Shown piece by piece: positions 1 through 45,223 of a stretch of 64,000 nucleotides of DNA. Positions within the stretch are counted from its first letter, which is position 1. Every line of letters starts with the position of its first letter. Source of the DNA: Agelas oroides (lineage: Eukaryota; Porifera; Demospongiae; Agelasida; Agelasidae); assembly GCA_949130485.1 (NCBI GenBank), contig OX422194.1:8781881-8845880 (forward strand), written 5' to 3'. The notes under the pieces were generated by a model that saw only the letters and a program-made list of their open reading frames with translations, was not told where the DNA came from and searched no databases. Position numbers and translations under genes: made by a program.

Positions 1-302
1 TTGCACAAGCACCGTCACAGGGCCGGATTGAAAATCACTGATAGAACTGGTAGCGATACAAGCATAGTCTCCTGAATCATTTTTCATTGCCATTGAAACT
101 GTGAGAGCACTTATAACTGATCTTGAAGCAACCAACTCGGATATGATAGTGGCTCGATTATTCTCATCCTCGCTGACTATTGTCCCATTGTGAGTCCATG
201 TGATAGTTGGTACTGGGTAGCCGGATGCACTACACACTAGTGTGAAGTTCTCAGAGAGAGTAGCATTCACAGCAGAGGGTCCCACGAGGAGAAGAGGTGC
301 AA
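1..302 (-). CDS. Gene 4 exon, further Ig domain (open at left edge)
   Basis: Acceptor TATTTAG, no donor before the window edge. Ig domain with LVCSASGYPVP, ITWTHNG and YACIATS. A decayed copy of this exon is visible in gene 3 at about 25545-25660. Confidence 0.7.
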
Positions 303-3300
303 CTAAATAACAAATAACATTAATAATAGTGAATTGTTTTAACACAGCTATAGGATACACCATACCATTCAGAGTGACGGCAGCACTGTCACTGCCAGCG
401 TCATTCTCCACAAGGCACTCATAAACACTGCCAGCTAAAGCACCTTCAACCACTACCTGGAGCACTGGATCACTGGCAACAACTTTATCATCAAGCATTC
501 TAAACCACGTGAAGTTGTTTACAGGTCCTCCCAGAGCAGAACAGGTAAACTCCACAATCGTGTTCCTTTCTGCATTGATGACTTCAGGTGTGACATGGAC
601 ACTGTCCTCAGGAGAAACTGTATGGTCAAACAAAGAGATTATAAAGCAGCTTAGCAATGCACATGGCCAATACAAATGATCCCATCTAATTACCTGTCAG
701 TAGAGCTGGTATTGACATAGCATTTCTGTTTGACCCTGGCAGACTGGCGACACAGCGATAGCTCCCCTCGTCCCCAAACACTGCTGGTGTAAACTGAAGC
801 ACTGGACCACTCCTCACTGTATCATAACTGCCATTTTCCTCAATATATTTTTCCCATGTGTATTCGGGAGCTGGGAAACTTTCAGCTACACAGGTGAAGT
901 TTACAACTGTTCCATTTCTGGTCAGTATGTTAGTTGGTTGTGTGACTATGATGGGCTCAACATACAGCAGAGCTGTAGCACTGTCACTGCCTACAGCGTT
1001 GCTCACCACACAGGTATAGCTCCCCCCATTCATAGCAGTGATGTTACTAACAGTCAGAGTGGTATCGATTTCATTCATCAAATCTCTTCCATCCTTCTGC
1101 CACTGATATGTAATGTAAGGACCACCTTGTGCAGAGCAATTGAAGGTAGCAGCTCCTCCATGGTCAGCAATCTCCATCTCAGGTGAAACGGCTGGAGCTG
1201 TCATGGATTAAACTCAGTGTGACTCAGTGACTCAGTTGTGCTTTGATCTTAAAACCATGCATACGACCTACAGTCATTGTAGGTACTATAAGCAATAGTG
1301 CCGTCCTGAGTTCAAATAATTCAAACCATAGCTACCATAACCAAATTGGCAGTAACTATAAAGCATGCATGGCCTCATTTCCAGGCTCTCTCCATGCACA
1401 AACAAAGGTGGGGGCCTGGGTGTGGACGTCTACCGCTCATATATCTGTGGTCTATGACTTGATACACCATCACTGGGTAGGCAGCAGCATAAGTGCTCTA
1501 AATAGGTTTTCAGTCTCATATAGTTTACAAGTCCAAACCACATTCCAAGATCCTCACAAAATTTTTGAGTGTAATGCTGCAAATTTTTAGTGCTACTTAG
1601 CTAAAAAAAAAACTCCACCATAAGCTTTATTTTGTCTCATACCTTACTTTATATAAGTATCAGTAAATGGACAAAATTTTTGGTTTATGGGACCAAAACT
1701 CCAGCAAACTTGGCCCTTCCTGGACTAATGCTACAAAATTTTAGTGCTAGCTACTTAGCTAAAAAAAACTCCATCATAACACTGGCAGTTCTATCATCTT
1801 TATTTTGTCTCATACCTTACTTTATAAGTATCAGTAAATGGATGCCTCTTAACATTAAAATTTGGTTTATGGGACCAAAACTCCAGCAAACTTGGCCCTT
1901 CCTGGACTACAATTTTAGTGGTGTCTTACCAGTGTTTGCTGTGTACACTCCAATGAATATGGTCTGATTAGCACCTGCTGCATCTGATTGAGGTACAGGT
2001 ATCTCACAGCGGTAGATCCCATCCTCTCCACCTCTCCTCCTGTGTAGAAGTACCACACTCCGACCTCTGGTTCTGTGGAAGTCCCACTGGTCACCCGAGC
2101 TGACAACTCGAGTTCCATTGGGAAAGAACCAGTTTCCTAAGGTAATATCACCAGAAGGCGGTCGGCAACAATCAGTTATATCAGTTCTGCAGAGCAGGGC
2201 ATCATCATCTTCACCAATGTTCTCCAGGGTCACGACACTGTTGTTCTGGTATGTTGTACCATTGAGTGAGAACCAGACATCACCTGCACCAGGGAAGGGA
2301 GAATTCATCACCAATGTCACAAAAGTACTGTTTCGAGGAATGAGGCTAAAGATGTAAATGGACAAATTATTGGGTGAATAGTTCTCCCAAAAATGTCTAT
2401 GGTAGATAAACGATGCTCTAAAGTATTTAAGGAGTTGCTGACATCCGGATACCACTACTTTTGTATACATTTCCTGTTTTGTATTTGCTTTGCTTTGTTT
2501 TGTTTTGTTTTGTTTTGTTTTGTTTTGTTTTGCTTTGTTTTGCTTTGCTTTGTTTTGTTTTGTTGTTTAGTTGTTTTGTTTTGTTTTGTTTTGTTGTTTT
2601 GTTTTCTTGTTTGTTTTTATTTTGTTTTGTGGCTATTAAAACAACTCGGCATACATATGCTTACCCGTCTTGCTACACGTGTGTAGCTGCATATAGATGT
2701 GGATTAGGTAATGATAAACTGAGGTTCATTGTGGCTAAAGGTGTACATGCACGGACATAAACAAGGAGGCAAGTGCTCCAAGTTGTTGACAAAATCAGTG
2801 TGATACATGCTCCAGCCAAAGTTTGATGAATGTGAGCTCCTATCAAGAGACAGTTGAGAATGACAAAACCAGCTAGTGCCAGACATACAGCTTAACACAA
2901 CAGGCGACAACAGGTATACATATCGATACAGAAGTTTGGGTCACATCTTTGATGCCCAGCTAGATGAACTAGGGAAAGTGGATCATGCAGTAAAGAAGAC
3001 CTAAGCCCTCATTGCCTTGTTCTCACCATAGAAATATACTGTCCTGTTAGAGCTCCCCCTGGAATTCTCCACCATACAGCTGTATAAGCCATAAAGATTG
3101 TCTCCAGTCACTGACTGAGCAATGGTGAGTGTGTTCTGGTAACTGCCTTCAACAGTATCTACTATCATCTGTGTCTGCTGGTGGGTTGTACTGGGAGTGA
3201 TCACAGCTCCATCCTTTGTCCAGATGACAGTGGTAGCAGGTCCACCAGTGGAGGTGCAGTTGAGAGTCCTGGACTCTCTGTCAAATGTAAACTCAGTGAC

Positions 3301-6300
3301 GTTGGGGGCACCTGCATGCAAATGAGGACAAGCAAATTAACTGGTGACAACTTGGAGCAGTATGTGCGTGCATGAGATTCCTATGTTCCATCCTTTCACT
3401 ATCTTAACTTGGGACATTAAAACCATTATAACCACCGAGTTCCATTCTCAAGAAGTCTCTACAGTAATGGAGCCCCTACAAAGGCAGAGGAGCAGTCTCT
3501 ATGCTCGTTTGCACTAACAAGAAGAGCCAGTGCCAACCAAGGCCTTTCTTGTACACAGCCAGCCAAGACAGCTGCCATGTACATGACACCTCGTGCTTAA
3601 ACCCACCCACCTCCCCCTATCCCACCCATTTTGTTAGCACATAGTCAATCTTCATTGTGCCAAGTGATAACATGTGGCCAAAGTCAGATGACGAGTACAC
3701 TCGTCATGGTTGGTTAAAGGGTCAAATAGAACCCTGGTCTATGACTTGATATACCATCACTGGGTATGTAGGCAGCAGCATAAGTGCTCTAAATAGGTTT
3801 TTAGTCTCATATAGTTTAAAGTCCAAGCCACATTCCAAGATCCTCACAGAATTTTTGAGTGTAATGCTGCAAATTTTTAGTGCTACTTAGCTAAAAAAAC
3901 TCCATCATAAGCTTTTTTTTTGTCTCATACCTTACTTTATAAGTATCAGTAAATGGACAAAATTTTTGGTTTATGGGACCAAAACTCCAGCAAACTTGGC
4001 CCTTCCTGGACTAATGCTACAAAATTTTAGTGCTAGCTACTTAGCTAAAAAAAAACTCCATCATAACACTGGCAGTTCTATCATCTTTATTTTGTCTCAT
4101 ACCTTACTTTATAAGTATCAGTAAATGGATGCCTCTTAACATTAAAATTTGGTTTATGGGACCAAAACTCCAGCAAACTTGGCCCTTCCTGGACTACAAT
4201 TTTAGTGGTGTCTTACCAGTGTTTGCTGTGTACACTCCAATGAATATGGTCTGATTAGCACCTGCTGCATCTGATTGAGGTACAGGTATCTCACAGCGGT
4301 AGATCCCATCCTCTCCACCTCTCCTCCTGTGTAGAAGTACCACACTCCGACCTCTGGTTCTGTGGAAGTCCCACTGGTCACCCGAGCTGACAACTCGAGT
4401 TCCATTGGGAAAGAACCAGTTTCCTAAGGTAATATCACCAGAAGGCGGTCGGCAACAATCAGTTATATCAGTTCTGCAGAGCAGGGCATCATCATCTTCA
4501 CCAATGTTCTCCAGGGTCACGACACTGTTGTTCTGGTATGTTGTACCATTGAGTGAGAACCAGACATCACCTGCACCAGGGAAGGGAGAATTCATCACCA
4601 ATGTCACAAAAGTACTGTTTCGAGGAATGAGGCTAAAGATGTAAATGGACAAATTATTGGGTGAATAGTTCTCCCAAAAATGTCTATGGTAGATAAACGA
4701 TGCTCTAAAGTATTTAAGGAGTTGCTGACATCCGGATACCACTACTTTTGTATACATTTCCTGTTTTGTATTTGCTTTGCTTTGTTTTGTTTTGTTTTGT
4801 TTTGTTTTGCTTTGTTTTGCTTTGCTTTGTTTTGTTTTGTTGTTTAGTTGTTTTGTTTTGTTTTGTTTTGTTGTTTTGTTTTCTTGTTTGTTTTTATTTT
4901 GTTTTGTGGCTATTAAAACAACTCGGCATACATATGCTTACCCGTCTTGCTACACGTGTGTAGCTGCATATAGATGTGGATTAGATAATGATAAACTGAG
5001 GTTCATTGTGGCTAAAGGTGTACATGCACAGACATAAACAAGGAGGCAAGTGCTCCAAGTTGTTGACAAAATCAGTGTGATACGTGCTCCAGCCAAAGTT
5101 TGATGAGTGTGAGCACCTATCAAGAGACAGTTGAGAATGACAAAACCAGCTAGTGCCAGACATACAGCTTAACACAACAGGCGACAACAGGTATACATAT
5201 CGATACAGAAGTTTGGGTCACATCTTTGATGCCCAGCTAGATGAACTAGGGAAAGTGGATCATGCAGTAAAGAAGACCTAAGCCCTCATTGCTCTGTTCT
5301 CACCATAGAAATATACTGTCCTGTTAGAACTTCCTCTGGAATTCTCCACCATACAGCTGTATAAGCCATAAAGATTGTCTCCAGTCACTGACTGAGCAAT
5401 GGTGAGTGAGTTCTGGTAACTGCCTTCAACAGTATCTACTATCATCTGTGTCTGCTGGTGGGTTGTACTGGGAGTGATCACAGCTCCATCCTTTGTCCAG
5501 ATGACAGTGGTAGCAGGTCCACCAGTGGAGGTGCAGTTGAGAGTCCTGGACTCTCTGTCAAATGTAAACTCAGTGACGTTGGGGGCACCTGCATGCAAAT
5601 GAGGACAAGCAAATTAACTGGTGACAACTTGGAGCAGTATGTGCGTGCATGAGATTCCTATGTTCCATCCTTTCACTATCTTAACTTGGGACATTAAAAC
5701 CATTATAACCACCGAGTTCCATTCTCAAGAAGTCTCTACAGTAATGGAGCCCCTACAAAGGCAGAGGAGCAGTCTCTATGCTCGTTTGCACTAACAAGAA
5801 GAGCCAGTGCCAACCAAGGCCTTTCTTGTATACAGCCAGCCAAGACAGCTGCCATGTACATGACACCTCGTGCTTAAACCCACCCACCTCCCCCTATCCC
5901 ACCCATTTTGTTAGCACATAGTCAATCTTCATTGTGCCAAGTGATAACATGTGGCCAAAGTCAGATGACGAGTACACTCGTCATGGTTGGTTAAAGGGTC
6001 AAATAGAACCCTGGTCTATGACTTGATATACCATCACTGGGTATGTAGGCAGCAGCATAAGTGCTCTAAATAGGTTTTTAGTCTCATATAGTTTAAAGTC
6101 CAAACCACATTCCAAGATCCTCACAGAATTTTTGAGTGTAATGCTGCAAATTTTTAGTGCTACTTAGCTAAAAAAACTCCATCATAAGCTTTTTTTTTGT
6201 CTCATACCTTACTTTATAAGTATCAGTAAATGGACAAAATTTTTGGTTTATGGGACCAAAACTCCAGCAAACTTGGCCCTTCCTGGACTAATGCTACAAA

Positions 6301-9300
6301 ATTTTAGTGCTAGCTACTTAGCTAAAAAAAAACTCCATCATAACACTGGCAGTTCTATCATCTTTATTTTGTCTCATACCTTACTTTATAAGTATCAGTA
6401 AATGGATGCCTCTTAACATTAAAATTTGGTTTATGGGACCAAAACTCCAGCAAACTTGGCCCTTCCTGGACTACAATTTTAGTGGTGTCTTACCAGTGTT
6501 TGCTGTGTACACTCCAATGAATATGGTCTGATTAGCACCTGCTGCATCTGATTGAGGTACAGGTATCTCACAGCGGTAGATCCCATCCTCTCCACCTCTC
6601 CTCCTGTGTAGAAGTACCACACTCCGACCTCTGGTTCTGTGGAAGTCCCACTGGACATCCGAGCTGACAACCCGAGTTCCATTGGGAAAGAACCAGTTGT
6701 TTGCAACATTATCACGATAAGGCGGTCGGCAACAATCAGTTATATCAGTTCTGCAGAGCAGGGCATCATCATCTTGACCAATGTCCTCCAGGGTCACGAT
6801 ACTGTTGTTCTGGTATGTTGTACCATTGAGTGAGAACCAGACATCACCTGCATCAGGGAAGGAAGAATTCAACACCAATGTCACAAAAGTACTGTTTCGA
6901 GGAATGAGGCTAAAGATGTAAATGGACAAATTATTGGGTGAATAGTTCTCCCAAAAATGTCTCTGGTAGATAAATGATGCTCTAAAGTATATTATTGAGT
7001 TGCTGACTTCCGGATACCACTACTTTTGTATACATTTCCTGTTTTGTATTTGCTTTGCTTTGTTTTGTTTTGTTTTGTTTTGTTTTGTTTTGTATTCTAT
7101 TTTGCTTTGCTTTGCTTTGCTTTGTTTTGTTTTGTTTTGTTTTGTTTTGTTTTGTATTCTATTTTGCTTTGCTTTGCTTTGCTTTGCTTTGCTTTGCTTT
7201 GCTTTGTTTTGCTTTGCTTTGCTTTGTTTTGCTTTGCTTTGTTTTGCTTTGTTTTGTTTTGTTGTTTAGTTGTTTTGTTTTGTACATATGCTTACCTCTT
7301 ATTCAACTGTCTTGCTACACGTGTGTAGCTGCATATAGATGTGGATTAGGTAATGATAAACTGAGGTTCATTGTGGCTAAAGGTGTACATGCACGGACAT
7401 AAACAAGGAGGCAAGTGCTCCAAGTTGTTGACAAAATCAGTGTGATACGTGCTCCAGCCAAAGTTTGATGAATGTGAGCTCCTATCAAGAGACAGTTGAG
7501 AATGACAAAACCAGCTAGTGCCAGACATATAGCTTAACACAACAGGCGACAACAGGTATACATATCGATACAGAAGTTTGGGTCACATCTTTGATGCCCA
7601 GCTAGATGAACTAGGGAAAGTGGATCATGCAGTAAAGAAGGCCTAAGCCCTCATTGCTCTGTTCTCACCATAGAAATATACTGTCCTGTTAGAACTCCCC
7701 CTGGAATTCTCCACCATACAGCTGTATAAGCCATAAAGATTGTCTCCAGTCACTGACTGAGCAATGGTGAGTGTGTTCTGGTAAATGCCTTCAACAGTAT
7801 CTACTATCATCTGTGTCTGCTGGTGGGTTGTACTGGGAGTGATCACAGCTCCATCCTTTGTCCAGATGACAGTGGTAGCAGGTCCACCAGTGGAGGTGCA
7901 GTTGAGGGTCCTGGAGTCTCTGTCAAATGTAAGCTCAGTGACGTTGGGGGCACCTGCATGCAAACAAGGACAAGAAACTGTACACTTTATTATCACTGTA
8001 TATGTTTTGAGGGGTGTACCATTTTTCTAGTAGAAGGTTTGAAAGGCCATTTTTCTATTCTATATATAACAGCCTTCTCCTGCAGCAAAAATGTATGTGT
8101 ACAGGTACCGTATAGCGGGAAATTTTCACTGGGTGCAAATTTTCACGGTTTTCATGGACAGACCTGCTTCCATGAAAGTATAAACTGCAGAAAAATGAAC
8201 TAAGGTGGAAATTGGTGACATCATTATGTGCGTACGTCTATACGAACTAGTACCCGTGTGAACGAGATGGTTCTCTACAGTCTATCTGCCCTTTAAATAG
8301 TCACTGTAGAGAAGATCAGCCTGCTACTACACATAATGCCAATGAACCTGTAAGAGACGCTCTGAAGTTGTCAAAGTCGAGATCAGCAGTGCAGAATCCT
8401 TCTGTTCAAAAAGGCCCACGACAGCAGTTCCTGATACTTTCGTAATTGCGAAGGCCTCCACCCAAAAGGAAGACTAGGCTGTTGTTGCACAAGGTTGCTT
8501 CTTCGCTTCGTCGTTGAGTGTCATTTCTTCTGTTCGCATGTGCAGCGTAGCCATCATGTGGTCAGAGTGCCAAGCATTCATTCCGTGAAAATAAAAACTG
8601 AGAAGATTTCTTCTGAAGAGTCTTGATGCAGTTTCGCGACATTTTGCACCAGCGAAAATTTCCCACTATACGGTATATAGCTACTATAGCATTGACACAA
8701 TAGAGCCATGAACTGGTAGTATCACCTGACATTATGGTCAGTAAACTAAAAAAAAAAACAAAGTAGGTCTACTTGCATAGCGGCCACACTAATCGTAGAG
8801 AGATGGCTCACCAGTGCTTGCTGTGTACACTCCAATGTATATGCTCTGAATAACATTTGCTGTATCTGGTATCTCACAGCGGTAGATTCCTTCCTCTCCT
8901 CCTCTTCTGCGGTTCAATCGTACCACACTCCAACCTCTGGTTCTGTAGAAGTCCCACTGTTTACCCACACTGGGAACCAGACTTTCACTAGGAACCCGAG
9001 TTCCATTGGGAAAGAACCAGTTTCCAATGGCAGAACCCACTTCACCAGTATGAGGAGGTTGGCAACAATTGCGTTGGTCAGTTATGCAGAGCAGAGCATC
9101 ATCATTTTCACCAATGTCCTCCAGGGTCACAACACTGTTGTTCTGGTAGGTTGTACCATTGAGTGAGAACCTAACATCAGCTGCACCAGGGAAGGAAGAA
9201 AGAATCAATGTCATGGTTTGTGTCAACCAATAGTACCTTTCTTGCTGCTATTTGACTTTGACCACAGCCCAAAACTTTCTCAAAGTCGACAGATCTCTAC

Positions 9301-12300
9301 ACCAGTGTTAAGAAGTGTTGAGTGCCACAGGTAATTGCATAATTGATATGAAAGTGAAAACATACAGGACTGTCAATGGAACTCACAGTTAATGTATTTC
9401 TGGGAGCTATTCTCTGATTGCAGGGTATGTTTCACTTGCAGGGTATGTTAGGTATTGTTTTAGCTACACACTGATATGTCTGCAGCTATACTTGACGTAT
9501 GTAACTGAAGATTAATAGGAAGGCAACACGGACATGATACAAAGGCCATATGGGCAGTTAAAACAGGCATGGATGGTGATGAGAAACATGACAATTAATT
9601 TTGCTTGGCCCAAGTGAAGAGATTTTAAGAGAATAATGTAGAAAGTGTATGGAACAAGCTTGCATCATTTATTATCAAAGTACATGCTTACCATAGATAT
9701 ATACTCTCCTGTTAGAAGTCCCCCTGGAATTCTCCACCATACAGCTGTATAAGCCAGAAAGATTGTCTCCAGTCACTGACTGAGCAATGGTGAGTGTGTT
9801 CTGGTAAATGCCTTCAACAGTATCTACTATCATCTGTGTCTGCTGGTGGGTTGTACTGGGAGTGATCACAGCTCCATCCTTTGTCCAGATGACAGTGGTA
9901 GCAGGTCCACCAGTGGAGGTGCAGTTGAAAGTCCTGGACTCTCTGTCAAATGTAAGCTCAGTGACGTTGGGGGCACCTGCATGCAAACAAGGACAAGAAG
10001 AAACTGTACACTTTATTATCACTGTATATCTTTTGAGGGGTGTACCATTTTTCTAGTAGAAGGTTTGAAAGGCCATTTTTCTATTCTATATATAACAGCC
10101 TTCTCCTGCAGCAAAAATGTATGTGTACAGGTACCGTATAGCGGGAAGTTTTCACTGGGTGCAAATTTTCACGGTTTTCATGGACAGACCTGCTTCCATG
10201 AAAGTATAAACTGCAAAAAAATGAACTAAGGTGGAAATTGGTGACATCATTATGTGCGTACATCGATACGAACTAGTACCCGTGTGAACGAGATGGTTCT
10301 CTACAGTCTATCTGCCCTTTAAATAGTCACTGTAGAGAAGATCAGCCTGCTACTACACATAATGCCAACAAACCTGTAAGAGATGCTCTGAAGTTGTCAA
10401 AGTCAAGATCAGCAGTGCAGAATCCTTCTGTTCAAAAAGGCCCTCGACGGCAGTTCCTGATACTTTCGTAATTGCGAAGGCCTCCACCCAAAAGGAAGAC
10501 TAGGCTGTTGTTGCACAAGGTTGCTTCTTCGCTTCGTCGTTGAGTGTCATTTCTTCTGTTCGCATGTGCAGCGTAGCCATCATGTGGTCAGAGTGCCAAG
10601 CATTCATTCCGTGAAAATAAAAACTGAGAAGATTTCTTCTGAAGAGTCTTGATGCAGTTTTGCGACATTTTGCACCAGCGAAAATTTCCCACTATACGGT
10701 ATATAGCTACTATAGCATTGACACAATAGAGCCATGAACTGGTAGTATCACCTGACATTATGGTCAGTAAACTAAAAAAAACAAAGTAGGTCTACTTGCA
10801 TAGCGGCCACACTAATCGTAGAGAGATGGCTCACCAGTGCTTGCTGTGTACACTCCAATGTATATGCTCTGAATAACATTTGCTGTATCTGGTATCTCAC
10901 AGCGGTAGATTCCTTCCTCTCCTCCTCTTCTGCGGTTCAACCGTACCACACTCCAACCTCTGGTTCTGTAGAAGTCCCTCTGTTTACCCACGCTGGGAAC
11001 CCGAATTTCACTAGGAACCCGAGTTCCATTGGGAAAGAACCAGTTTCCAATGGTAGAACCCACTTCACCAGTATGAGGAGGTCGGCAACAATTGCGTTGG
11101 TCAGTTATGCAGAGCAGAGCATCATTACCTTCACCAATGTCCTCCAGGGTCACGACACTGTTGTTCTGGTATGTTGTACCATTGAGTGAGAACCTAACAT
11201 CAGCTGCACCAGGGAAGGGAGAAAGAATCAATGTCATGGTTTGTGTCAACCAATAGTACCTTTCTTGCTGCTATTTGACTTTGACCACAGCCCAAAACTT
11301 TCTCAAAGTCGACAGATCTCTACACCAGTGTTAAGAAGTGTTGAGTGCCACAGGTAATTGCATAATTGATATGAAAGTGAAAACATACAGGACTGTCAAT
11401 GGAACTCACAGTTAATGTATTTCTGGGAGCTATTCTCTGATTGCAGGGTATGTTTCACTTGCAGGGTATGTTAGGTATTGTTTTAGCTACACACTGATAT
11501 GTCTGCAGCTATACTTGACGTATGTAACTGAAGATTAATAGGAAGGCAATACGGACATGATACAAAGGCCATATGGGCAGTTAAAACAGGCATGGATGGT
11601 GATGAGAAACATGACAATTAATTTTGCTTGGCCCAAGTGAAGAGATTTTAAGAGAATAATGTAGAAAGTGTATGGAACAAGCTTGCATCATTTATTATCA
11701 AAGTACATGCTTACCATAGATATATACTCTCCTGTTAGAAGTCCCCCTGGAATTCTCCACCATACAGCTGTATAAGCCAGAAAGATTGTCTCCAGTCACT
11801 GACTGAGCAATGGTGAGTGTGTTCTGGTAAATGCCTTCAACAGTATCTACTATCATCTGTGTCTGCTGGTGGGTTGTACTGGGAGTGATCACAGCTCCAT
11901 CCTTTGTCCAGATGACAGTGGTAGCAGGTCCACCAGTGGAGGTGCAGTTGAAAGTCCTGGACTCTCTGTCAAATGTAAGCTCAGTGACGTTGGGGGCACC
12001 TGCATGCAAACAAGGACAAGAAGAAACTGTACACTTTATTATCACTGTATATCTTTTGAGGGGTGTACCATTTTTCTAGTAGAAGGTTTGAAAGGCCATT
12101 TTTCTATTCTATATATAACAGCCTTCTCCTGCAGCAAAAATGTATGTGTACAGGTACCGTATAGCGGGAAGTTTTCACTGGGTGCAAATTTTCACGGTTT
12201 TCATGGACAGACCTGCTTCCATGAAAGTATAAACTGCAAAAAAATGAACTAAGGTGGAAATTGGTGACATCATTATGTGCGTACATCGATACGAACTAGT

Positions 12301-15300
12301 ACCCGTGTGAACGAGATGGTTCTCTACAGTCTATCTGCCCTTTAAATAGTCACTGTAGAGGAGATCAGCCTGCTACTACACATAATGCCAATGAACCTGT
12401 AAGAGACGCTCTGAAGTTGTCAAAGTCAAGATCAGCAGTGCAGAATCCTTCTGTTCAAAAAGGCCCTCGACGGCAGTTCCTGATACTTTCGTAATTGCGA
12501 AGGCCTCCACCCAAAAGGAAGACTAGGCTGTTGTTGCACAAGGTTGCTTCTTCGCTTCGTCGTTGAGTGTCATTTCTTCTGTTCGGATGTGCAGCGTAGC
12601 CATCAACTGGTAGGGGTGAGTGCCAAGCATTCATTCCGTGAAAATAAAAACTGAGAAGATTTCTTCTGAAGAGTCTTGATGCAGTTTCGCGACATTTTGC
12701 ACCAGCGAAAATTTCCCACTATACGGTATATAGCTACTATAGCATTGACACAATAGAGCCATGAACTGGTAGTATCACCTGACATTATGGTCAGTAAACT
12801 AAAAAAAACAAAGTAGGTCTACTTGCATAGCGGCCACACTAATCGTAGAGAGATGGCTCACCAGTGCTTGCTGTGTACACTCCAATGTATATGCTCTGAA
12901 TAACATTTGCTGTATCTGGTATCTCACAGCGGTAGATTCCTTCCTCTCCTCCTCTTCTGCGGTTCAATCGTACCACACTCCAACCTCTGGTTCTGTAGAA
13001 GTCCCTCTGTTTACCCACGCTGGGAACCCGAATTTCACTAGGAACCCGAGTTCCATTGGGAAAGAACCAGTTTCCAATGGTAGAACCCACTTCACCAGTA
13101 TGAGGAGGTCGGCAACAATTGCGTTGGTCAGTTATGCAGAGCAGAGCATCATTACCTTCACCAATGTCCTCCAGGGTCACGACACTGTTGTTCTGGTAGA
13201 CTGTACCATTGAGTGAGAACCTAACATCAGCTGCACCAGGGAAGGGAGAAAGAATCAATGTCACAGTTTATGTCAACCAATAGTACGTTTCTTGCTGCTA
13301 TTTGACTTTGACCACAGCCCAAAACTCTCTCAAAGTCGACAGATCTCTACACCAGTGTTAAGAAGTGTTGAGTGCCACAGGTAATTGCATAATTGATATG
13401 AAAGTGAAAATATATGGAACTGCCACCAAATAATGGAACTCACAGTTAATGTATTTCTGGGAGCTATTCTCTGATTGCAGGGTATGTTTCACTTGCAGGG
13501 TATGTTAGGTATTGTTTTAGCTACACACTGATATGTCTGTTGCTATACTTGACGTATGTAACTGAAGATTAATAGGAAGGCAACACGGACATGATACAAA
13601 GGGTTAAAATAGGCATGGATGGTGATGAGAAACATGACAATTAATTTTGCTTGGCCCAAGTGAAGAGATTTTAAGAGAATAATGTAGAAAGTGTATGGAA
13701 CAAGCTTGCATCATTTATTATCAAAGTACATGCTTACCATAGATATATACTGTCCTGTTAGAGCTTCCCCTGGAATTCTCCACCATACAGCTGTATAAGT
13801 CAGAAAGATTGTCTCCAGTCACTGACTGAGCAATGGTGAGTGTGTTCTGGTAAATGCCTTCAACAGTATCTACTATCATCTGTGTCTGCTGGTGGGTTGT
13901 ACTGGGAGTGATCACAGCTCCATCCTTTGTCCAGATGACAGTGGTAGCAGGTCCACCAGTGGAGGTGCAGTTGAGGGTCCTGGACTCTCTGTCAAATGTA
14001 AGCTCAGTGATGTTGGGAGTACCTGCATGCAAACAAGGACAAGAATTAAGAAACTGTACACTTTACTATCACTGTATATGTTTTGAGGGGTGTACCATTT
14101 TTCTAGTAGTAACTTTGAAAGCCATTTTTCTATTCTATATATAACAGCCTTCTCCTGCAGCAAAAATGTATGTGTACAGGTACCGTATAGTGGGAAATTT
14201 TCACTGGGTGCAAATTTTCACGGTTTTCATGGACAGACCTGCTTCCATGAAAGTATAAACTGCAGAAAAATGAACTAAGGTGGAAATTGGTGACATCATT
14301 ATGTGCGTACGTCGATACGAACTAGTACCTGTGTGAACCGAGATGGTTCTCTATCTGCCCTCTAAATAGTCACTGTAGAGGAGATCAGCCTGCTACTACA
14401 CATAATGCCAACAAACCTGTAAGAGACGCTCTGAAGTTGTCAAAGTCGAGATCAGCAGTGCAGAATCCTTCTGTTCAAAAAGGCCCACAACGGCAGTTCC
14501 TGATACTTTCGTAATTGCGAAGGCCTCCACCCAAAAGGAAGACTAGGCCGTTGTTGCACAAGGTTGCTTCTTCGCTTCGTCGTTGAGTGTCATTTCTTCT
14601 GTTCGCATGTGCAGCGTAGCCATCAACTGGTAGGGGTGAGTGCCAAGCATTCATTCCGTGAAAATAAAAACTGAGAAAATTTCTTCTGAAGAGTCTTGAT
14701 GCAGTTTCGTGAAATTTTGCACCAGCGAAAATGTCCCACTATATGGTATATAGCTACTATAGCATTGACACAATAGAGCCATGAACTGGTAGTATCACCT
14801 GACATTATGGTCAGTAAACTAAAAAAAGCAAAGTAGGTCTACCTGCATAGCGGCCACACTAATTGGTGAGAGATGGCTCACCAGTGCTTGCTGTGTACAC
14901 TCCAATGTATATGCTCTGAGTAACATTTGCTGTATCTGGTATCTCACAGCGGTAGATTCCATCCTCTCCTCCTCTTCTGCGGTTCAATCGTACCACACTC
15001 CAACCTCTGGTTCTGTGGAAGTCCCACTGTTTGCCCGAGCTGGGAACCTGAGTTCCATTAGGAAAGAACCAGTGTCCAATGACAGAACCCACTTCACCAG
15101 TATGATGAGGTCGGCAACAATTGGGTAGGTCAGTTCTGCAGAGCAGAGCATCATCATTTTCACCAATGTCCTCCAGGGTCACGACACTGTTGTTCTGGTA
15201 GACTGTACCATTGAGTGAGAACCTAACATCAGCTGCACCAGGGAAGGAAGAAAGAATCAATGTCACGGTTTGTGTCAACCAATAGTACCTTTCTTGCTGC

Positions 15301-18300
15301 TATTTGACTTTGACCACAACCCAAAACTTTCTCAAAGTCGACAGATCTCTACACCAGTGTTAAGAAGTGTTGACTGCCACAGGTAATTGCATAATTGATA
15401 TGAAAGTGAAAATATATGGAACTGCCACCAAATAATGGAACTCACAGTTAATGTATTTCTGGGAGCTGTTCTCTGATTGCAGGGTATGTTTCACTTGCAG
15501 GGTATGTTAGGTATTGTTTTAGCTACACACTGATATGTCTGTTGCTATACTTGACGTATGTAACTGAAGATTAATAGGAAGGCAACACGGACATGATACA
15601 AAGGCCATATGGGCAGTTAAAATAGGCATGGATGGTGATGAGAAACATGACAATTAATTTTGCTTGGCCCAAGTGAAGAGATTTTAAGAGAATAATGTAG
15701 AAAGTGTATGGAACAAGCTTGCATCATTTATTATCAAAGTACATGCTTACCATAGATATATACTCTCCTGTTAGAAGTCCCCCTGGAATTCTCCACCATA
15801 CAGCTGTATAAGCCAGAAAGATTGTCTCCAGTCACTGACTGAGCAATGGTGAGTGTGTTCTGGTAAATGCCTTCAACAGTATCTACTATCATCTGTGTCT
15901 GCTGGTGGGTTGTACTGGGAGTGATCACAGCTCCATCCTTTGTCCAGATGACAGTGGTAGCAGGTCCACCAGTGGAGGTGCAGTTGAAAGTCCTGGACTC
16001 TCTGTCAAATGTAAGCTCAGTGATGTTGGGAGTACCTGCATGCAAACAAGGACAAGAATTAAGAAACTGTACACTTTATTATATATCATTGTATATGTTT
16101 TGAGGGGTGTACCATTTTTCTAGTAGTAACTTTGAAAGCCATTTTTCTATTCTATATATAACAGCCTTCTCCTGCAGCAAAAATGTATGTGTACAGGTAC
16201 CGTATAGTGGGAAATTTTCACTGGGTGCAAATTTTCACGGTTTTCATGGACAGACCTGCTTCCATGAAAGTATAAACTGCAGAAAAATGAACTAAGGTGG
16301 AAATTGGTGACATCATTATGTGCGTACGTCGATACAAACTAGTACCCGTGTGAACCGAGATGGTTCTCTATCTGCCCTCTAAATAGTCACTGTAGAGGAG
16401 ATCAGCCTGCTACTACACATAATGCCAACAAACCTGTAAGAGACGCTCTGAAGTTGTCAAAGTCGAGATCAGCAGTGCAGAATCCTTCTGTTCAAAAAGG
16501 CCCACGACAGCAGTTCCTGATACTTTCGTAATTGCGAGGCCTCCACACAAAAGGAAGACTAGGCTGTTGTTGCACAAGGTTGCTTCTTCGCTTCGTCGTT
16601 GAGTGTCATTTCTTCTGTTCGGATGTGCAGCGTAGCCATCATGTGGTCAGAGTGCCAAGCATTCATTCCGTGAAAATAAAAACTGAGAAGATTTCTTCTG
16701 AAGAGTCTTGATGCAGTTTCGCGACATTTTGCACCAGCGAAAATTTCCCACTATACGGTATATAGCTACTATAGCATTGACACAATAGAGCCATGAACTG
16801 GTAGTATCACCTGACATTATGGTCAGTAAACTAAAAAAAACAAAGTAGGTCTACTTGCATAGCGGCCACACTAATCGTAGAGAGATGGCTCACCAGTGCT
16901 TGCTGTGTACACTCCAATGTATATGCTCTGAATAACATTTGCTGTATCTGGTATCTCACAGCGGTAGATTCCTTCCTCTCCTCCTCTTCTGCGGTTCAAT
17001 CGTACCACACTCCAACCTCTGGTTCTGTAGAAGTCCCACTGTTTACCCACGCTGGGAACCCGAATTTCACTAGGAACCCGAGTTCCATTGGGAAAGAACC
17101 AGTTTCCAATGGTAGAACCCACTTCACCAGTATGAGGAGGTCGGCAACAATTGCGTTGGTCAGTTCTGCAGAGCAGAGCATCATTACCTTCACCAATGTC
17201 CTTCAGGGTAACAATACTGTTGTTCTGGTAGGTTATCTTTCTGAGTGAGAACCAGACATCACCTGCATCAAGAAATACCAGAAGTGTTGTAATGTGTACC
17301 ACTGACAACAGTGATTGACCTTAAAATGAGGCTAACTTGTAAAGATGAAGAGATTATCTGTTACGCTTTCACCCTGATGAGGACTGGAGCATTCAGTCAA
17401 AACATCGGCAAGTTATTTTCTGAGCTCAAGTTGGTAACAGATAACCTTCTCTTCATTTATGCAGAAGCCAACTGAGAAGCCACTGAAAGAGGCTAAAGAT
17501 GTACATGCACATATTGTGTTCTTGACTCATTGTTACAGCAGCCATGGACCATTACAGATACTGATGTTGAAGACCTGGGTATAGGGCTATGTTATTGTAA
17601 CCTTCCTGTACATGCAAATGTCCAGGTCAGTGAGACAGTACTCAAAAACGCTGTTTTACATCACGTGCTGTGAACTTATTGTGCTTATGTGTGTCTGGTT
17701 ACATTTTGTCAGCATTTATGGCAAGCTACAAACTTTTGCATAATCATGAAAAAGTTGCGGGTACAAACCCTGGAGTAAAATGCATTTCTACGAAAGTGTA
17801 CGGAAGTAGTTTGACTTAAATCACTCACGTAACATGCCACAATTTTATAGGCAGAAACCACAGCTAGTAAACAGTTGGCAGTTACAGTGGAGGAAGTGGT
17901 CTTATGGGCTAGTATTATTGACGTTTCTTGGGTTCTAACCAGTGCACAAGTAGGGTAGCACACAGCTGGTTTGGTGTTCCACTTTTTTGCTTGAATAGAG
18001 ATACTGGTACTCAACCAAGAATTATGGATGTGCACTGCATACCATTGTTCATGTATACATTTCTTCATACCATACATGTGATATTGTTCTTGAGCACTTG
18101 TAGAAGCAGCCGTGGACCATTACAGACACTGCATGTTGAAGACCTGGGTACAGGGCTATGTTACTGTAACCTTCCCCAGTGCTGTTGTTACTCATTGAAC
18201 CTTGACTTTGATCACCACCAACAACACCACTGTACAAACGTTCAGGTCAGTGTGACAGTACCCAAAAATGCTGTTGTACATCATGTGCTGTGAAATTATT

Positions 18301-20099: not shown

Positions 20100-21160
20100 T
20101 CGATCTAAGCTTATCTTCAAAGTTCCGAGCACCACATGAAGGGTGCCGCCAGGCCACATCTTAACTAACTTAATTATAAACTGATTATTGGATGGCAATG
20201 CCGACAGGAAATGGGGAAAATCCCCAATTTTACGGACCGTGAACGGTTTGAGACTCCCAAAACGGACTGTGCGCTAAAATTTTAACAAGAAAAAGAAGAC
20301 TATCAACTTGGATTCCAGGTTTGTTGACCTTGAAAATACAGGGTACCGTGCCACCTTAAAAGGGGGGGCCTAGAGAATCATTCATGCACTGCACAGAATG
20401 CATTTCGACCAGTATATCATTAATTCACTGAGTTGCATATGCTACTGCCCTTTGCAGGTAGGTTGTCAACAGTTGGAGTAAACTTGTGGTTTACCTGCAT
20501 GGTCAATCAATGACTTCATAGGCTACAGAGACTGACAGTCTACATTTCATGGTTTCCTCAAAAAGAGGACTTGTATCATGCACTTGTAAGTATACAGGTG
20601 TTTTGGGAATCTAACCTCCTGGGTTTTTTGGCGACCTATTGGTCCTTATTGGCTTCGTGTGGTTGCTCACCACATCAATTACAGTAAGTTAATTAGTGTA
20701 AGGGCTCGGATTCCCGCGGTCAAATAGATCGCTAAATCATAAAACCAAAATATAAACAGTGCAAAAGTTGAAGCCACTAAATGTTTGAAATTGTGCATAA
20801 AATTATACAGGTGTCCAGTGGTTTGAATTTGTGAATAAAATTATACAGATGTCCAAATGTCTCGTGCACAAAATTAGCAAATACATTGCACACTATATAG
20901 CATACTAGCAATAGCCTCGTAGGTGTAGCCTCAGGCGCGCCAATAGTGATTGCGCCTGCAGCGACATACAATTTTTCCTGAAGATGGCTGGGAATTATTT
21001 GTGTGTCGCTTCATAGATACTACATGTGCAAATTTATAATACATTATTATGGATCGGCATGCAGCATATTCAAAATTGCGTCCCGTTGCTTACCTCTAGC
21101 CAGTTGCAAACGCAAAGCTAGGCAGAGCAGCAACACGAAACAAGCTGAGTACTTGAACAT
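1..21160 (-). CDS. Receptor gene 4: signal peptide plus 8x(W) and 7x(B) Ig exon array, then further Ig domains (partial, runs off left edge)
   Basis: This is a minus-strand, multi-exon gene for a secreted or membrane Ig-superfamily protein. Exons in order: 21094-21160 (signal), W1 16894-17262, B1 15751-16035, W2 14882-15232, B2 13738-14022, W3 12862-13230, B3 11715-11999, W4 10835-11203, B4 9692-9976, W5 8812-9180, B5 7669-7953, W6 6494-6847, B6 5304-5588, W7 4217-4570, B7 3027-3311, W8 1930-2283, double Ig 694-1197, Ig 366-617, Ig 1-302 (open at the edge). Borders were read from GT/AG sites. Every internal complete exon is a multiple of 3 and phase 1-1. If all exons are used, about 2,000 residues are visible. 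The start at 21160 opens a hydrophobic leader (CFVLLLCLALRLQLARG). The membrane anchor and tail must lie left of the window. Whether all cassettes enter one mRNA or are chosen alternatively cannot be told from DNA. Confidence 0.75.
366..617 (-). CDS. Gene 4 exon, further Ig domain
   Basis: 252 nt, phase 1-1, acceptor ATACAG, donor GTATG. Ig domain with FTCSALGGPV, FTWFRML and YECLVENDAGSD. Confidence 0.7.
694..1197 (-). CDS. Gene 4 exon with two classical Ig (I-set-like) domains
   Basis: 504 nt, phase 1-1, acceptor GACAG, donor GTAATT. Two Ig domains lie in one exon: Cys in FNCSAQGG, Trp in YQWQKDG, Cys in YTCVVSNAVGSD, then FTCVAES, YTWEKY and YRCVASLPG. They are unlike the W and B types and closer to ordinary cell-adhesion Ig domains. 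Confidence 0.75.
1930..2283 (-). CDS. Gene 4 exon W8 (last V-like Ig domain of the array)
   Basis: 354 nt, phase 1-1. No B exon follows it; the next exon downstream is the unrelated double-Ig exon at 694-1197. This marks the 3' end of the amplified array. Confidence 0.8.
2478..2641. repeat. TTTTG/TTTGC microsatellite, copy 1
   Basis: A pentanucleotide TTTTG array in the intron between B7 and W8. It sits at the same place as the arrays at 4765-4912 and 7046-7283. The long Phe/Cys/Leu reading frames across it are artefacts. Confidence 0.9.
3027..3311 (-). CDS. Gene 4 exon B7 (Ig domain)
   Basis: 285 nt, phase 1-1. Ig core motifs LNCTSTGG, VIWTKDG and YGLYSCMVEN. Potential N-glycosylation at NVT, NCT and NRT. 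Donor GTGAGAAC. Confidence 0.8.
3312..4216. other. Type II intron block between W7 and B7, repeated at 5589-6493 and partly at 1240-1929
   Basis: No gene is seen in this intron. It contains two copies of a short motif (CTCCAGCAAACTTGGCCC, at about 3986 and 4166). The block is duplicated almost base for base at 5589-6493, and its last 600 bases are also present in the W8-to-Ig intron. This shows the repeat unit includes intron. Confidence 0.8.
4217..4570 (-). CDS. Gene 4 exon W7 (V-like Ig domain)
   Basis: 354 nt, phase 1-1. The exon and its flanking intron reading frame give the same 187-residue translation as W8, so this is a very recent duplicate. Confidence 0.8.
4765..4912. repeat. TTTTG/TTTGC microsatellite, copy 2
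   Basis: Same array in the B6-to-W7 intron. Shorter than copy 1 by a few units although the surrounding duplication is nearly perfect. Confidence 0.9.
5304..5588 (-). CDS. Gene 4 exon B6 (Ig domain)
   Basis: 285 nt, phase 1-1. Nearly the same peptide as B7 (one visible difference in the domain: YQNSLTI against YQNTLTI). Donor GTGAGAAC. Confidence 0.8.
6494..6847 (-). CDS. Gene 4 exon W6 (V-like Ig domain)
   Basis: 354 nt, phase 1-1. Type II W domain with ALLCRTDITDCCRPP, a diverged YRDNVANNWFFPNGT segment, and the PVPQSDAAGANQTIFIGVY end. Donor GTAAG. Confidence 0.8.
7046..7283. repeat. TTTTG/TTTGC microsatellite, copy 3 (expanded)
   Basis: Same array in the B5-to-W6 intron. It is longest here, with an internal duplication around a TATTCTATTTTG interruption and many TTTGC units. 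Confidence 0.9.
7669..7953 (-). CDS. Gene 4 exon B5 (Ig domain)
   Basis: 285 nt, phase 1-1. The exon and its downstream flank are type II (GTGAGAAC donor, RTVYFYG end). Its upstream intron is type I and carries the MITE, so this cassette is a junction between the two subfamilies. Confidence 0.8.
8108..8673. mobile_element. TA-flanked MITE in W5-to-B5 intron
   Basis: Terminal inverted repeats begin CCGTATAGCGGGAAATTTTC and end with the matching TTTCCCACTATACGG. The element is about 566 bp and flanked by TA. Size, TIR and TA target site fit a mariner/Tc1-like non-autonomous element. It has no transposase reading frame. Copies lie at the same position of the next four cassettes. Confidence 0.8.
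8812..9180 (-). CDS. Gene 4 exon W5 (V-like Ig domain)
   Basis: 369 nt, phase 1-1. Type I W domain. It has a unique SESLVPSVGKQ stretch and ITDQRNCCQPP around the extra cysteines. Confidence 0.8.
9692..9976 (-). CDS. Gene 4 exon B4 (Ig domain)
   Basis: 285 nt, phase 1-1. Ig core with FNCTSTGG and SGLYSCMVEN. The peptide is identical to B3. Confidence 0.8.
10134..10699. mobile_element. TA-flanked MITE in W4-to-B4 intron
   Basis: Second cassette copy of the CCGTATAG.GGGAAA element, 566 bp, same insertion point. Confidence 0.8.
10835..11203 (-). CDS. Gene 4 exon W4 (V-like Ig domain)
   Basis: 369 nt, phase 1-1. It has all W motifs, with the KQRDFYRTRG variant shared with W3. Acceptor GTGCAG, donor GTGAG. 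Confidence 0.8.
11715..11999 (-). CDS. Gene 4 exon B3 (Ig domain)
   Basis: 285 nt, phase 1-1. It encodes the same peptide as B4 over the whole domain. Donor GTAAG. Confidence 0.8.
12157..12726. mobile_element. TA-flanked MITE in W3-to-B3 intron
   Basis: Third cassette copy of the same element, about 570 bp. Confidence 0.8.
12862..13230 (-). CDS. Gene 4 exon W3 (V-like Ig domain)
   Basis: 369 nt, phase 1-1. Almost identical to W4, sharing the unusual KQRDFYRTRG where other copies have KQWDF. It differs from W4 mainly in NGTVYQNN against NGTTYQNN. Confidence 0.8.
13738..14022 (-). CDS. Gene 4 exon B2 (Ig domain)
   Basis: 285 nt, phase 1-1. It carries Cys-Trp-Cys Ig core motifs and starts NITELTFDRES. 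It has SDLYSCMVEN where other copies have SGLYSC or YGLYSC. Donor GTAAG. Confidence 0.8.
14183..14746. mobile_element. TA-flanked MITE in W2-to-B2 intron
   Basis: Fourth cassette copy. Its right end has drifted (CCCACTATATGG instead of CCCACTATACGG). Confidence 0.8.
14882..15232 (-). CDS. Gene 4 exon W2 (V-like Ig domain)
   Basis: 351 nt, phase 1-1. This is the shortest W of the type I cassettes. It lacks the six-residue extension after the GT.VPS motif that W1 and W3-W5 carry, and has GHWFFPNGTQ instead of GNWFFPNGTR. Its donor is GTGAG. Confidence 0.8.
15751..16035 (-). CDS. Gene 4 exon B1 (Ig domain)
   Basis: 285 nt, phase 1-1, donor GTAAG. Canonical Ig pattern: Cys in FNCTSTGG, Trp in VIWTKDG, and the second Cys in LYSCMVEN. 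It has the NITEL start shared with B2, and the RGTSNRRVYIYG end shared with B3 and B4. Confidence 0.8.
16200..16758. mobile_element. TA-flanked MITE in W1-to-B1 intron
   Basis: Fifth cassette copy of the same element, about 559 bp. Confidence 0.8.
16894..17262 (-). CDS. Gene 4 exon W1 (V-like Ig domain)
   Basis: 369 nt, phase 1-1, acceptor GATGCAG, donor GTGAG. It encodes the W domain with ALLCRTD, CC, GNWFFPNGT, FYRTRG and GIYRCEIP. It differs from its neighbours at its N-terminus (AGDVWFSLRKITYQNNSIVTL) and resembles the type II and gene 1-3 W exons there. It is the first cassette after the leader. Confidence 0.8.
17490..19140. repeat. Tandem segmental duplications inside gene 4 intron 1
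   Basis: No exon is seen here. A block at about 17715-18065 recurs at about 18815-19130, including the shared GGCAGAAACCACAGCTAG. A second block at about 17530-17700 recurs at about 18090-18330. The copies differ by scattered substitutions, so they are older than the W-B array duplications. Confidence 0.7.
19336..20355. mobile_element. piggyBac-like non-autonomous element with TTAA target site
   Basis: TTAA at 19332-19335 and 20356-20359 flanks inverted ends GGTGGCACGGT / ACCGTGCCACC. The interior (about 1 kb) has a poly-T run near 20069-20095 and no recognisable transposase. TTAA duplication is the hallmark of piggyBac elements; the family call is inference. Confidence 0.65.
21094..21160 (-). 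CDS. Gene 4 signal-peptide exon
   Basis: The exon runs from an ATG at 21160 to a GTAAG donor and is 67 nt long, ending in phase 1. It encodes a positively started, Leu-rich leader (MFKYSACFVLLLCLALRLQL). It closely matches the gene 1 leader exon at 49734-49800, which supports both starts. Confidence 0.8.
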
Positions 21161-43740: not shown

Positions 43741-44341
43741 TCAGTGATCTTCGTTTTGATAGAAATTAAAGTGGTCTCCCGGTCGGACTACTATGTGTTC
43801 ATAAATATGATCTTCACTGATAGAGTCCTTGTTGTCTTCAGTTGTAGCAATATACATTGGATTATCTGTTCTGTGGCTCAAAAGTGAAAACTTGGTTTCT
43901 CGATTATCATATGTATGGTCACCAGTCAGACCATTTCTAGTTACAACATGTTGATGCTGAACAGTTTCTGGACAATCATACTCATTCATAGCTACAGCCT
44001 TCTGATGGTGAACAGAGTTTTCGTATGCTGGACGATCGTATGTACGGTCATCGTTCACAGTTAGAGCCTGATGAGAGTTTCCATCTGTTGGACAATCATA
44101 CTCATTCATAGTTATAGCCTTCTGATGCCAAACAGTTTCCTTGTATGCCGGAGAATCGTATGTATGATCATCGTTTAGATCGCTCATTGATATAGCCTGC
44201 CCATGTTGAACAGTTTCTGCATATGCTGCACAGTCATATGCATAGTCAGACTGCAGGTGCTCAACGGAATCTCCGTATGCTGGACAAACCATTATTTTCA
44301 TGTCCACAGCAGGCGCATTTTCAAGCATTGAGTTATCACTT
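43741..44341 (-). CDS. Gene 1 cytoplasmic tail exon with repeated YDxP motifs
   Basis: 601 nt, starts by completing an Arg codon at acceptor CTGCAG. A unit of about 20-25 residues (Y-D-x-P, then H-Q-K-A-I/V-x-M-N-E) is repeated, so the tail has grown by internal duplication. It contains at least eight tyrosines in acidic or Pro contexts. Confidence 0.75.
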
Positions 44342-45192
44342 CTGCAGATCAAGAGGGAAAACACATCAGTAATGGAGCCATCGTCTATCACAATACCATC
44401 TTAAAATGACACTAGCCTTGTTTCCAGTTTGCACTCCCATGCTTGGCAAGAAAGTCATTCCCAAGTATAAAACTCGTTTTCAGCTAATTGTTCTCCCATT
44501 CCTTGTGCAAACTAATAACAAGACTTGGCAATGGAAAATTAACCCTCTCTTTGGTACAATCATAGTAGTGTCACTCTACTATCTATGGTACAATATTAGC
44601 TATGCACAATAACTGAGCAAACAAACGAAGTCTGAGAACAAAGTCATGTCAAAACTAACATCCTTACTTACCTCTTCTTCAGATCCTCCAGCTTGTGTGA
44701 TGTTCGCCTCCATCTAATCACTGCTACAATCACAGCCACTGTAACTAAGATGGCTATAACGCCAACACCTGCAGCCACTCCAGCAATAATAACGATTTGA
44801 GAAGACCGAATAGGTGATGTATCGGTAGAATCTGGGACTTCAGTGTCTAGCTCTTGTGTTGAAACTGAAACTATGTCACTGGGGGAACTGTTGCCAATCT
44901 CATTGAAGGCCACAACAGTAAAGTTGTAGGTGACACCAGGGTGGAGGCCAGTGATGTCAGCCATCTCAACTGTACTGTTGACAATCTGCACACCACTGCT
45001 TGCATCAAGGAAGGCTGGCTGCTGGTACATGACCCTATACCCTGTGATGGGAGCATTGTTGTCATGGGGCTCCTCCCACATTAGACTGATGCTACGAGAG
45101 GTGGTGTTAACTGATCTGACATTCTGAGGCTGTTCCGGACGAGCTGTAGGAGTTGTGTGTGTGAGTTTTGTATGCATCCACATGTGTAATGG

Positions 45193-45223
<31 letters not shown>

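What the first reader, a model, noticed from the sequence alone, without database searches (positions are those of the whole stretch)
1930..17262. Dscam-like array of fifteen interchangeable Ig exons in one receptor gene
Seen: eight W and seven B exons strictly alternate over 15 kb. Each has good GT/AG borders and is symmetric phase 1-1, so any cassette can be skipped, combined or recombined with the frame intact. Known: arrays of symmetric Ig exons underlie Dscam isoform choice in arthropods, and exon-level shuffling in recognition loci of other animals. Inference: the gene makes either one very long ectodomain (16+ Ig domains) or many isoforms differing in cassette content. Somatic or population copy-number variation is also easy here. 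I am not aware of this array being described.
Basis: partly seen in the sequence, partly recalled or inferred. Interest (0 to 1): 0.92.

Follow-up and report, generated by a model that had tools for sequence, protein, structure and literature searches.

The report
Tandem Ig-exon cassettes in giant receptor
An animal cell-surface receptor gene holds fifteen alternating immunoglobulin exons copied in tandem; the sequence points to one very long receptor whose cassettes are copied and recombined in DNA, rather than to a Dscam-style splicing switch.

Summary
The gene goes on beyond the window: signal exon, 15 cassette exons, four more Ig, an FN3 array, transmembrane-like exon, tail. It belongs to a clustered family with at least 185 W-like exons on 11 contigs; a second W-B array (10 W) lies about 0.66 Mb away.

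Best reading: an intragenic tandem array grown by unequal recombination of an ancestral Wt1-B-Wt2-B unit, probably spliced whole into one long ectodomain. For it: a hybrid W exon in the second array (12 t1 then 13 t2 diagnostic sites), and no frameshift or stop where about 5.6-5.8 and 1.9-2.7 were expected. Against Dscam-type choice: copies nearly alike (W7=W8, B3=B4), no signal exon per cassette, no simple shared pairing element found. No transcript or second haplotype was available, so splicing and copy-number variation remain inferred. W has no Pfam match in two copies scanned; t1 W exons differ more than their introns, partly through mosaicism.

The parts
21094..21160 (-). signal-peptide exon of the array gene, from its ATG to a phase-1 GT donor
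   Evidence: homologous exons at 42976-43044 and 49732-49800 (tblastn spans), a weak one at 29035-29091
16894..17262 (-). W1 (type t1; first ~60 alignment columns nearer paralogue pW4, rest like W3: a mosaic)
15751..16035 (-). B1 Ig exon
14882..15232 (-). W2 (t1, lacks 18 nt of the other t1 copies)
13738..14022 (-). B2
12862..13230 (-). W3 (t1)
11715..11999 (-). B3 (identical to B4)
10835..11203 (-). W4 (t1)
9692..9976 (-). B4
8812..9180 (-). W5 (t1)
7669..7953 (-). B5, where t1-type introns give way to t2-type introns
6494..6847 (-). W6 (type t2)
5304..5588 (-). B6
4217..4570 (-). W7 (t2, identical to W8)
3027..3311 (-). B7
1930..2283 (-). W8 (t2)
686..1207 (-). open frame with two further Ig domains after the array (exon ends not placed)
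   Evidence: Ig_3 6.7e-28, two stretches
1..696 (-). open frame with two further Ig domains (exon ends not placed); FN3 array, TM-like exon and tail follow outside the window (C12:8770494-8781861)
   Evidence: (Ig_3 7.1e-20, two stretches)
21924..29091 (-). paralogue C: possible signal exon (weak match), W28390-28749, B27238-27522, W26354-26704, B25887-26171, FN3 domains, TM-like exon, tail
32984..43044 (-). paralogue B: signal exon, W40110-40466, B39192-39476, W34898-35248, B34175-34459, TM-like exon, tail
43744..49800 (-). paralogue D: signal exon, W47519-47872, three tandem B (47012, 46317, 45612), FN3, TM-like stretch, tyrosine-rich tail

Best explanation
The array is a protein-coding intragenic tandem repeat of two-exon Ig cassettes. 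SHOWN: two of the three paralogues next door carry W(t1)-B-W(t2)-B; this gene carries (Wt1-B) five times, then (Wt2-B) twice and a last Wt2, the copies of each half sharing their introns. SHOWN: W exons exist that are mosaics of two W kinds with the frame intact, so exchange has happened inside exons. SHOWN: all 15 copies stay open and keep canonical splice borders. INFERRED: all or nearly all cassettes are spliced into one mRNA, giving a giant single-pass receptor (15 cassette Ig, four Ig, an FN3 array, tail). INFERRED: diversity arises in DNA, by unequal crossing over and conversion that change cassette number and make new W hybrids between alleles and paralogues, rather than by choosing one cassette per transcript. 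INFERRED: the job is contact-dependent recognition or adhesion at the cell surface.
For: Exon anatomy. W tree: W1-W5 with pW2 and pW4 against the rest, support 100/99 (23 rows, with 13 rows, W2 is weakly placed). Paralogues' order. Hybrid qW1 in the second array: 25 sites fixed differently in W2-W5 (W1 left out) and in W6-W8, pW3, pW5 read 12 t1 then 13 t2 (a single-breakpoint pattern by coin toss is about 1.4e-6). W1: first 60 columns 90% like pW4 (82% W8, 75-80% W2, W3, W5), later windows 98-100% like W3. Second array C12:8096652-8121125: ten W places; listed self-matches 89.9-98.1%, the 25 longest matches to this gene 88.0-91.9%, introns included. Open-frame test: 0 frameshifts against 5.6-5.8 expected, 0 stops against 1.9-2.7 (Poisson about 6e-4). 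The same gene holds an FN3 exon array of the same nature, 14 exons. Best signal-exon match inside the array only E 0.043, in a low-complexity plus-strand stretch. No 9-11 base element of the first intron (9-10 of the last) complementary to all B-W or all W-B introns.
Against: No transcript was examined, so constitutive inclusion is not shown. Near-identical introns mean that regulatory elements common to all copies within a type could hide in them; my search asked only for exact complementarity shared by both types, with 30 block shuffles as control. W exons of t1 differ more than their introns (40/369 against 58/1392, p 4.6e-6; without the mosaic first 60 columns 22/309, p 0.036), which could mean selection for variety. 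Self- and cross-array identities of the two arrays overlap (89.9% and 91.9%; here too one t2 pair of units is only 91.3%), so 'copies more alike within a gene' holds on the whole, not for every pair. Copy number rests on one assembly.
Confidence: 0.68

Rival explanations
1. Dscam-like isoform choice: cassettes are alternatively spliced (one, or varying subsets, per mRNA), the symmetric phase keeping the frame.
For: Symmetric 1-1 exons and strict alternation. W copies differ in loop-like segments: aa-variable columns 33 of 46 in loops against 34 of 83 in framework over all 13 W (p 0.0009); pN/pS 1.92 in t2 copies.
Against: W7=W8 and B3=B4 are identical, W3/W4 98.9%: little to choose from. No element of 9 or more bases complementary to the first or last intron in all B-W or all W-B introns; at 8 bases counts lie within the shuffled range. 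Splice borders canonical and near-identical within type in all copies. Loop excess is not significant within W1-W5 alone (11 of 41 against 14 of 83, p 0.24), and loops vary freely in many Ig domains (recalled).
Confidence: 0.17
2. Protocadherin/sDscam-like array: each cassette is a first exon with its own promoter.
For: 5' position of the cassettes; tandem Ig cassettes as in chelicerate sDscam (PMC4835542, passages seen).
Against: One signal exon found, upstream of all cassettes. A generic scan for ATG-led hydrophobic frames with a phase-1 GT found weak frames in 5 of 14 introns: four the same frame in the W-B introns of W1, W3, W4 and W5, one in B2-W3; none resembles the signal exons. Promoters were not tested.
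Confidence: 0.03
3. The array, or its copy number, is an assembly artefact (expanded or collapsed near-identical repeats).
For: Copies up to 99-100% alike; longest exact repeat 810 bp here and 1713 bp in the second array.
Against: Units carry their own fixed differences and indels; exact repeats are below usual long-read length (recalled; how this assembly was made is unknown); the hybrid tested has one clean breakpoint; the same mode recurs in at least three other places.
Confidence: 0.1

Closest known systems
LPA kringle IV type 2 array (human)
   Same: Near-identical multi-kilobase genomic units repeated inside one coding gene, isoforms following copy number. PMC6314250 (start of abstract in the listing): 5.6-kb repeat, more than 40 protein isoforms; [quoted passage not shown]
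   Different: Kringles, not Ig (recalled); allelic copy number is measured there, not here; here the unit alternates two different Ig domains, in two diverged types.
CEACAM5/PSG repeated A-B Ig exon pairs (recalled, no call)
   Same: Alternating pairs of Ig exons multiplied in tandem within a cell-surface gene and present together in the protein.
   Different: Fewer copies (three A-B pairs in CEACAM5, recalled), vertebrate; sequence relation not tested.
Arthropod Dscam-hv
   Same: IgSF/FN3 receptor with tandem Ig exon copies. A Dscam chain is the best solved-structure match of the B profile (5.3e-12 for the whole eight-Ig chain), a fold-level likeness.
   Different: Dscam-hv chooses one exon of each cluster by mutually exclusive splicing (PMC3364881, passages seen); no sign of that was found here.
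Chelicerate sDscam with tandem 5' cassettes
   Same: Tandem Ig cassettes in a clustered gene family (PMC4835542, passages seen).
   Different: There one Ig spans two exons and each cassette has its own promoter; here one exon is one Ig and one signal exon serves the array.
Hydractinia Alr family
   Different: No sequence or structural relation tested; intragenic cassette arrays not mentioned in the passages seen; role here unknown.

Membership tests
Dscam-hv type (mutually exclusive Ig exon arrays) | one exon per cluster in each mRNA | not testable with these tools
   no transcripts held
Dscam-hv type (mutually exclusive Ig exon arrays) | intronic docking/selector pairing shared by the cassettes (feature recalled) | tested here: inconclusive
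   0 k-mers of 9-11 bases (first intron) or 9-10 (last intron) complementary to all B-W or all W-B introns; at 8 bases 0-3, within the range of 30 shuffles; near-identical introns limit the test
Dscam-hv type (mutually exclusive Ig exon arrays) | diverged exon variants (feature recalled) | tested here: not met
   within type W 90.9-100%, B 95.4-100% over all seven; diverged only between W types (83-86%)
sDscam/protocadherin type | each cassette a first exon with its own promoter | tested here: inconclusive
   no signal-exon homologue better than E 0.043 inside the array; promoters themselves not tested
Intragenic coding tandem cassette array (LPA KIV-2, CEACAM A-B kind) | near-identical genomic units including introns | tested here: met
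Intragenic coding tandem cassette array (LPA KIV-2, CEACAM A-B kind) | all exons open, symmetric, canonical splice borders | tested here: met
Intragenic coding tandem cassette array (LPA KIV-2, CEACAM A-B kind) | copy number differs between alleles | not testable with these tools
   each tested flank found once in the assembly; copy number differs between paralogues
Intragenic coding tandem cassette array (LPA KIV-2, CEACAM A-B kind) | copies present together in the mRNA | not testable with these tools
   no transcripts held
Immunoglobulin superfamily | Ig fold by profile | tested here: met
   B: Ig_3 1.8e-10. W: no Pfam match in 2 of 2 copies scanned; PDB profile match to NCAM2 7.2e-5 for the chain but 0.05 for its best single stretch, zig-8 0.0015: weak by itself; structure prediction unavailable
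Hydractinia Alr family | sequence or structural homology, allelic control of fusion | not tested
   structure prediction switched off

The most novel reading that the evidence does not exclude
The locus is a recognition (possibly allorecognition) complex whose specificity is written in DNA as the number and hybrid composition of W-B cassettes in giant receptors: unequal crossing over inside W exons continually makes new hybrid W domains and new lengths, so individuals differ by cassette haplotype.
Probability: 0.15. Interest if true: 0.9.

Novelty: new variant of a known kind. Interest (0 to 1): 0.55.

Why it matters
A clustered receptor family with at least 185 W-like exons in one genome, in which whole Ig and FN3 cassettes multiply and recombine inside genes, gives a directly testable route by which an animal without antibodies could vary its surface recognition: count cassettes between individuals and mix cells. 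It also cautions that symmetric Ig exon arrays need not be splicing arrays.

Tried and rejected
Rejected: reading symmetric phase as proof of alternative splicing; a pure positive-selection story for W. W pN/pS is 0.91 (W1-W5), 1.92 (W6-W8, of which two are identical) and 0.51 (five paralogue W); B gives 0.71 (B1-B5), 0.10 (B6-B7) and 0.52 (seven paralogue B). Synonymous differences of t1 W are raised too (pS 0.055, against 0.010-0.034 per site for t1 introns), so exchange between copies explains part of the excess. Of the 13 W pairs tested against flanking introns, 6 of 10 t1 pairs gave p below 0.033 and a seventh (W1/W4) 0.041; W1/W3, W3/W4, W3/W5 and the three t2 pairs did not, and two of the t2 pairs lean the other way; pairs are not independent. 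B exons show no excess in any of 6 pairs. Loop limits for W were set by hand from the Cys/Trp/Cys landmarks and the NCAM2 alignment, after seeing the alignment.

Led nowhere: W profile in genome contigs and B profile in viral contigs, 0 relatives; an end of the repeated intronic element in viral contigs and genome contigs, 0 exact matches. Ten paper searches were made; six aimed at this kind of gene, four at comparisons or the element. No title or abstract start listed describes this array, nor do the passages seen of PMC8242945, PMC11999971, PMC4704026 and PMC12723187. This covers open-licence PMC papers only, and the six searches all presumed a sponge. The phylum was not established: a sponge is my recollection-based suspicion, no call shows it. 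My pattern missed one W of the second array (C12:8103055), present and read. TM-like exons were judged by eye from hydrophobic stretches, no predictor was run.
Full report
OBSERVATION. On the minus strand, eight W and seven B exons alternate without exception from 17262 down to 1930. All 15 have AG before and GT after, a length divisible by three, phase 1 at both borders and no stop. W exons start 2.28-2.32 kb apart from W8 to W5 and 2.01-2.03 kb apart from W5 to W1. The array encodes 1628 residues.

THE GENE. One signal exon lies upstream at 21094-21160 and ends in phase 1 at a GT. Below W8 come four further Ig domains. The own genome became reachable: 259 Mb in 141 contigs, the window being C12:8781881-8845880. 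Downstream DNA (L009-L011, L023-L024) shows an FN3-like frame, then 14 exons of two FN3 types that mostly alternate (9 a, one of them divergent, and 5 b by my pattern), more FN3-like frames, a frame with a hydrophobic TM-like stretch at C12:8771080-8771604 and a tail-like frame near 8770494-8770775. So one gene of about 33 kb seems to hold two separate exon arrays. Gene ends and the joins between these exons are inferred from open frames and borders, not from cDNA; Pfam was run on FN3 frames of the paralogues, not on these.

THE FAMILY. Three same-strand paralogues lie beside it in the window. Two carry W-B-W-B, the first W of type t1 and the second of t2; the third carries W-B-B-B, its W falling on the t2 side. 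The W tree joins W1-W5 with the first W of the two paralogues (pW2, pW4) against all others, support 100/99 (23 rows; with 13 rows leaves W2 weakly placed). The array gene is therefore the same four-exon plan with each half multiplied: (Wt1-B)x5, (Wt2-B)x2, Wt2. Genome-wide, two W queries found 185 distinct places on 11 contigs, a lower bound because 150 were scored per query. Grouped by strand and gaps under 4.5 kb they form 128 runs: 99 of one, 18 of two, 5 of three, 3 of four, 1 of five, 1 of eight (this gene) and 1 of ten; the cap may have cut some runs short. As far as seen, long W arrays are exceptional in the family.

HOW IT GREW. Within t1, introns are 96.2-99.6% alike; between t1 and t2 forced alignment gives about 60-69% and BLAST finds only the exons and short flanks in common. 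The second array (C12:8096652-8121125, plus strand, ten W places) has listed self-matches of 89.9-98.1%, while the 25 longest matches to this gene are 88.0-91.9%, introns included; so copies within a gene are on the whole, not without exception, the more alike. Its first W is a clean hybrid: at 25 sites fixed differently in W2-W5 and in W6-W8, pW3 and pW5, the first 12 read t1 and the last 13 read t2. W1 of this gene is a mosaic as well: its first 60 alignment columns are 90% like pW4, 82% like W8 and 75-80% like W2, W3 and W5; after column 120 it is 96-100% like W3 and W5. Frame-preserving exchange inside W exons is thus inferred from two exons. No donor better than 91% was listed elsewhere for the W1 start (40 of 896 candidates scored).

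ARE ALL COPIES USED? Intron indel and substitution rates predict 5.6-5.8 frame-breaking indels and 1.9-2.7 stops in the 15 exons; 0 and 0 are seen, the only indel being 18 nt. So each copy has probably been kept open by selection since it arose. This fits inclusion of every cassette, but also any use of every cassette.

DSCAM TEST. Dscam-hv selects one of many exons per cluster (PMC3364881, passages) and sDscam cassettes carry promoters (PMC4835542, passages). Here W7=W8 and B3=B4 are identical; the best signal-exon match in the array is E 0.043, in a low-complexity plus-strand stretch; and no element of 9-11 bases of the first intron, or 9-10 of the last, is complementary to all B-W or all W-B introns, while at 8 bases counts (0-3) lie within the range of 30 block shuffles. 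The generic scan for short hydrophobic ATG-led frames was positive in 5 of 14 introns, four of them the same repeated frame; I take these as chance. None of this excludes alternative splicing.

W AND B EVOLVE DIFFERENTLY. Within t1, B exons differ no more than introns (13/285 against 58/1392, p 0.75); W exons differ more (40/369, p 4.6e-6; 22/309 without the mosaic start, p 0.036). Amino-acid-variable columns are denser in three loop-like segments over all 13 W (33 of 46 against 34 of 83, p 0.0009) and in W6-W8 (8 of 36 against 3 of 83, p 0.003), not within W1-W5 alone (11 of 41 against 14 of 83, p 0.24). pN/pS of W is 0.91, 1.92 and 0.51 in t1, t2 and paralogues. I read this as exchange plus relaxed or diversifying change in loops; it does not prove positive selection. 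W has no Pfam match in the two copies scanned; its PDB profile match is NCAM2 (7.2e-5 for the chain, 0.05 for its best stretch), so its Ig nature rests on that, on zig-8 (0.0015) and on the Cys/Trp/Cys pattern. Four Cys are invariant in all 13, two of them adjacent.

ASSEMBLY. The longest exact repeat is 810 bp here and 1713 bp in the second array. Two flank queries each matched in full only themselves, so no second haplotype is available.

VERDICT. A real and exact observation, best explained as an intragenic tandem cassette array of the LPA KIV-2 / CEACAM kind (CEACAM recalled) in a large clustered receptor family, with mosaic W exons shown and splicing, allelic variation and function inferred.

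Noticed in passing
C12:8775793-8781401 (L011), same gene: A second exon array in the array gene: 14 FN3 exons of two types, mostly alternating, with symmetric phase-1 borders.
   Followed up: partly
C12:8096652-8121125 (L018-L021): Second W-B array with ten W; longer W (378 nt) and shorter W (351 nt) come in pairs, as if pairs had been duplicated again.
   Followed up: partly
C4:7171121-7198510 (L014-L017): Another gene-like array: three Ig frames per roughly 1.46 kb unit, 19 Ig_3 hits of one kind in the scored list, exact repeats up to 1710 bp.
   Followed up: partly
C12:7733516-7739034: Relatives of the two-Ig stretch of this gene recur; eight start 589-590 bp apart, with a partial one before them.
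   Followed up: no
window 31443-32428: A minisatellite of about 1 kb, open in several minus-strand frames, Ser/Pro/Thr-rich, like the stalk stretch of paralogue B (33628-33699); a tail-like duplicate lies at 31091-31434.
   Followed up: no
window about 8100-8700 and the other t1 W-B introns: A repeated element with inverted ends (ACCGTATAG...), perhaps an old short transposon amplified with the unit; no exact match of its end in viral contigs or genome contigs.
   Followed up: partly
window 41923-41980: Remnant of a W exon between paralogue B's signal exon and its first W, with a stop after it.
   Followed up: no
window 43744-44400: Tail-like frame of paralogue D has 14 tyrosines and four YDxP motifs; those of B, C and D share a CPAY motif.
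   Followed up: partly
window 45480-47312: Three tandem B exons in paralogue D, units 96-97% alike: B can be multiplied without W.
   Followed up: no
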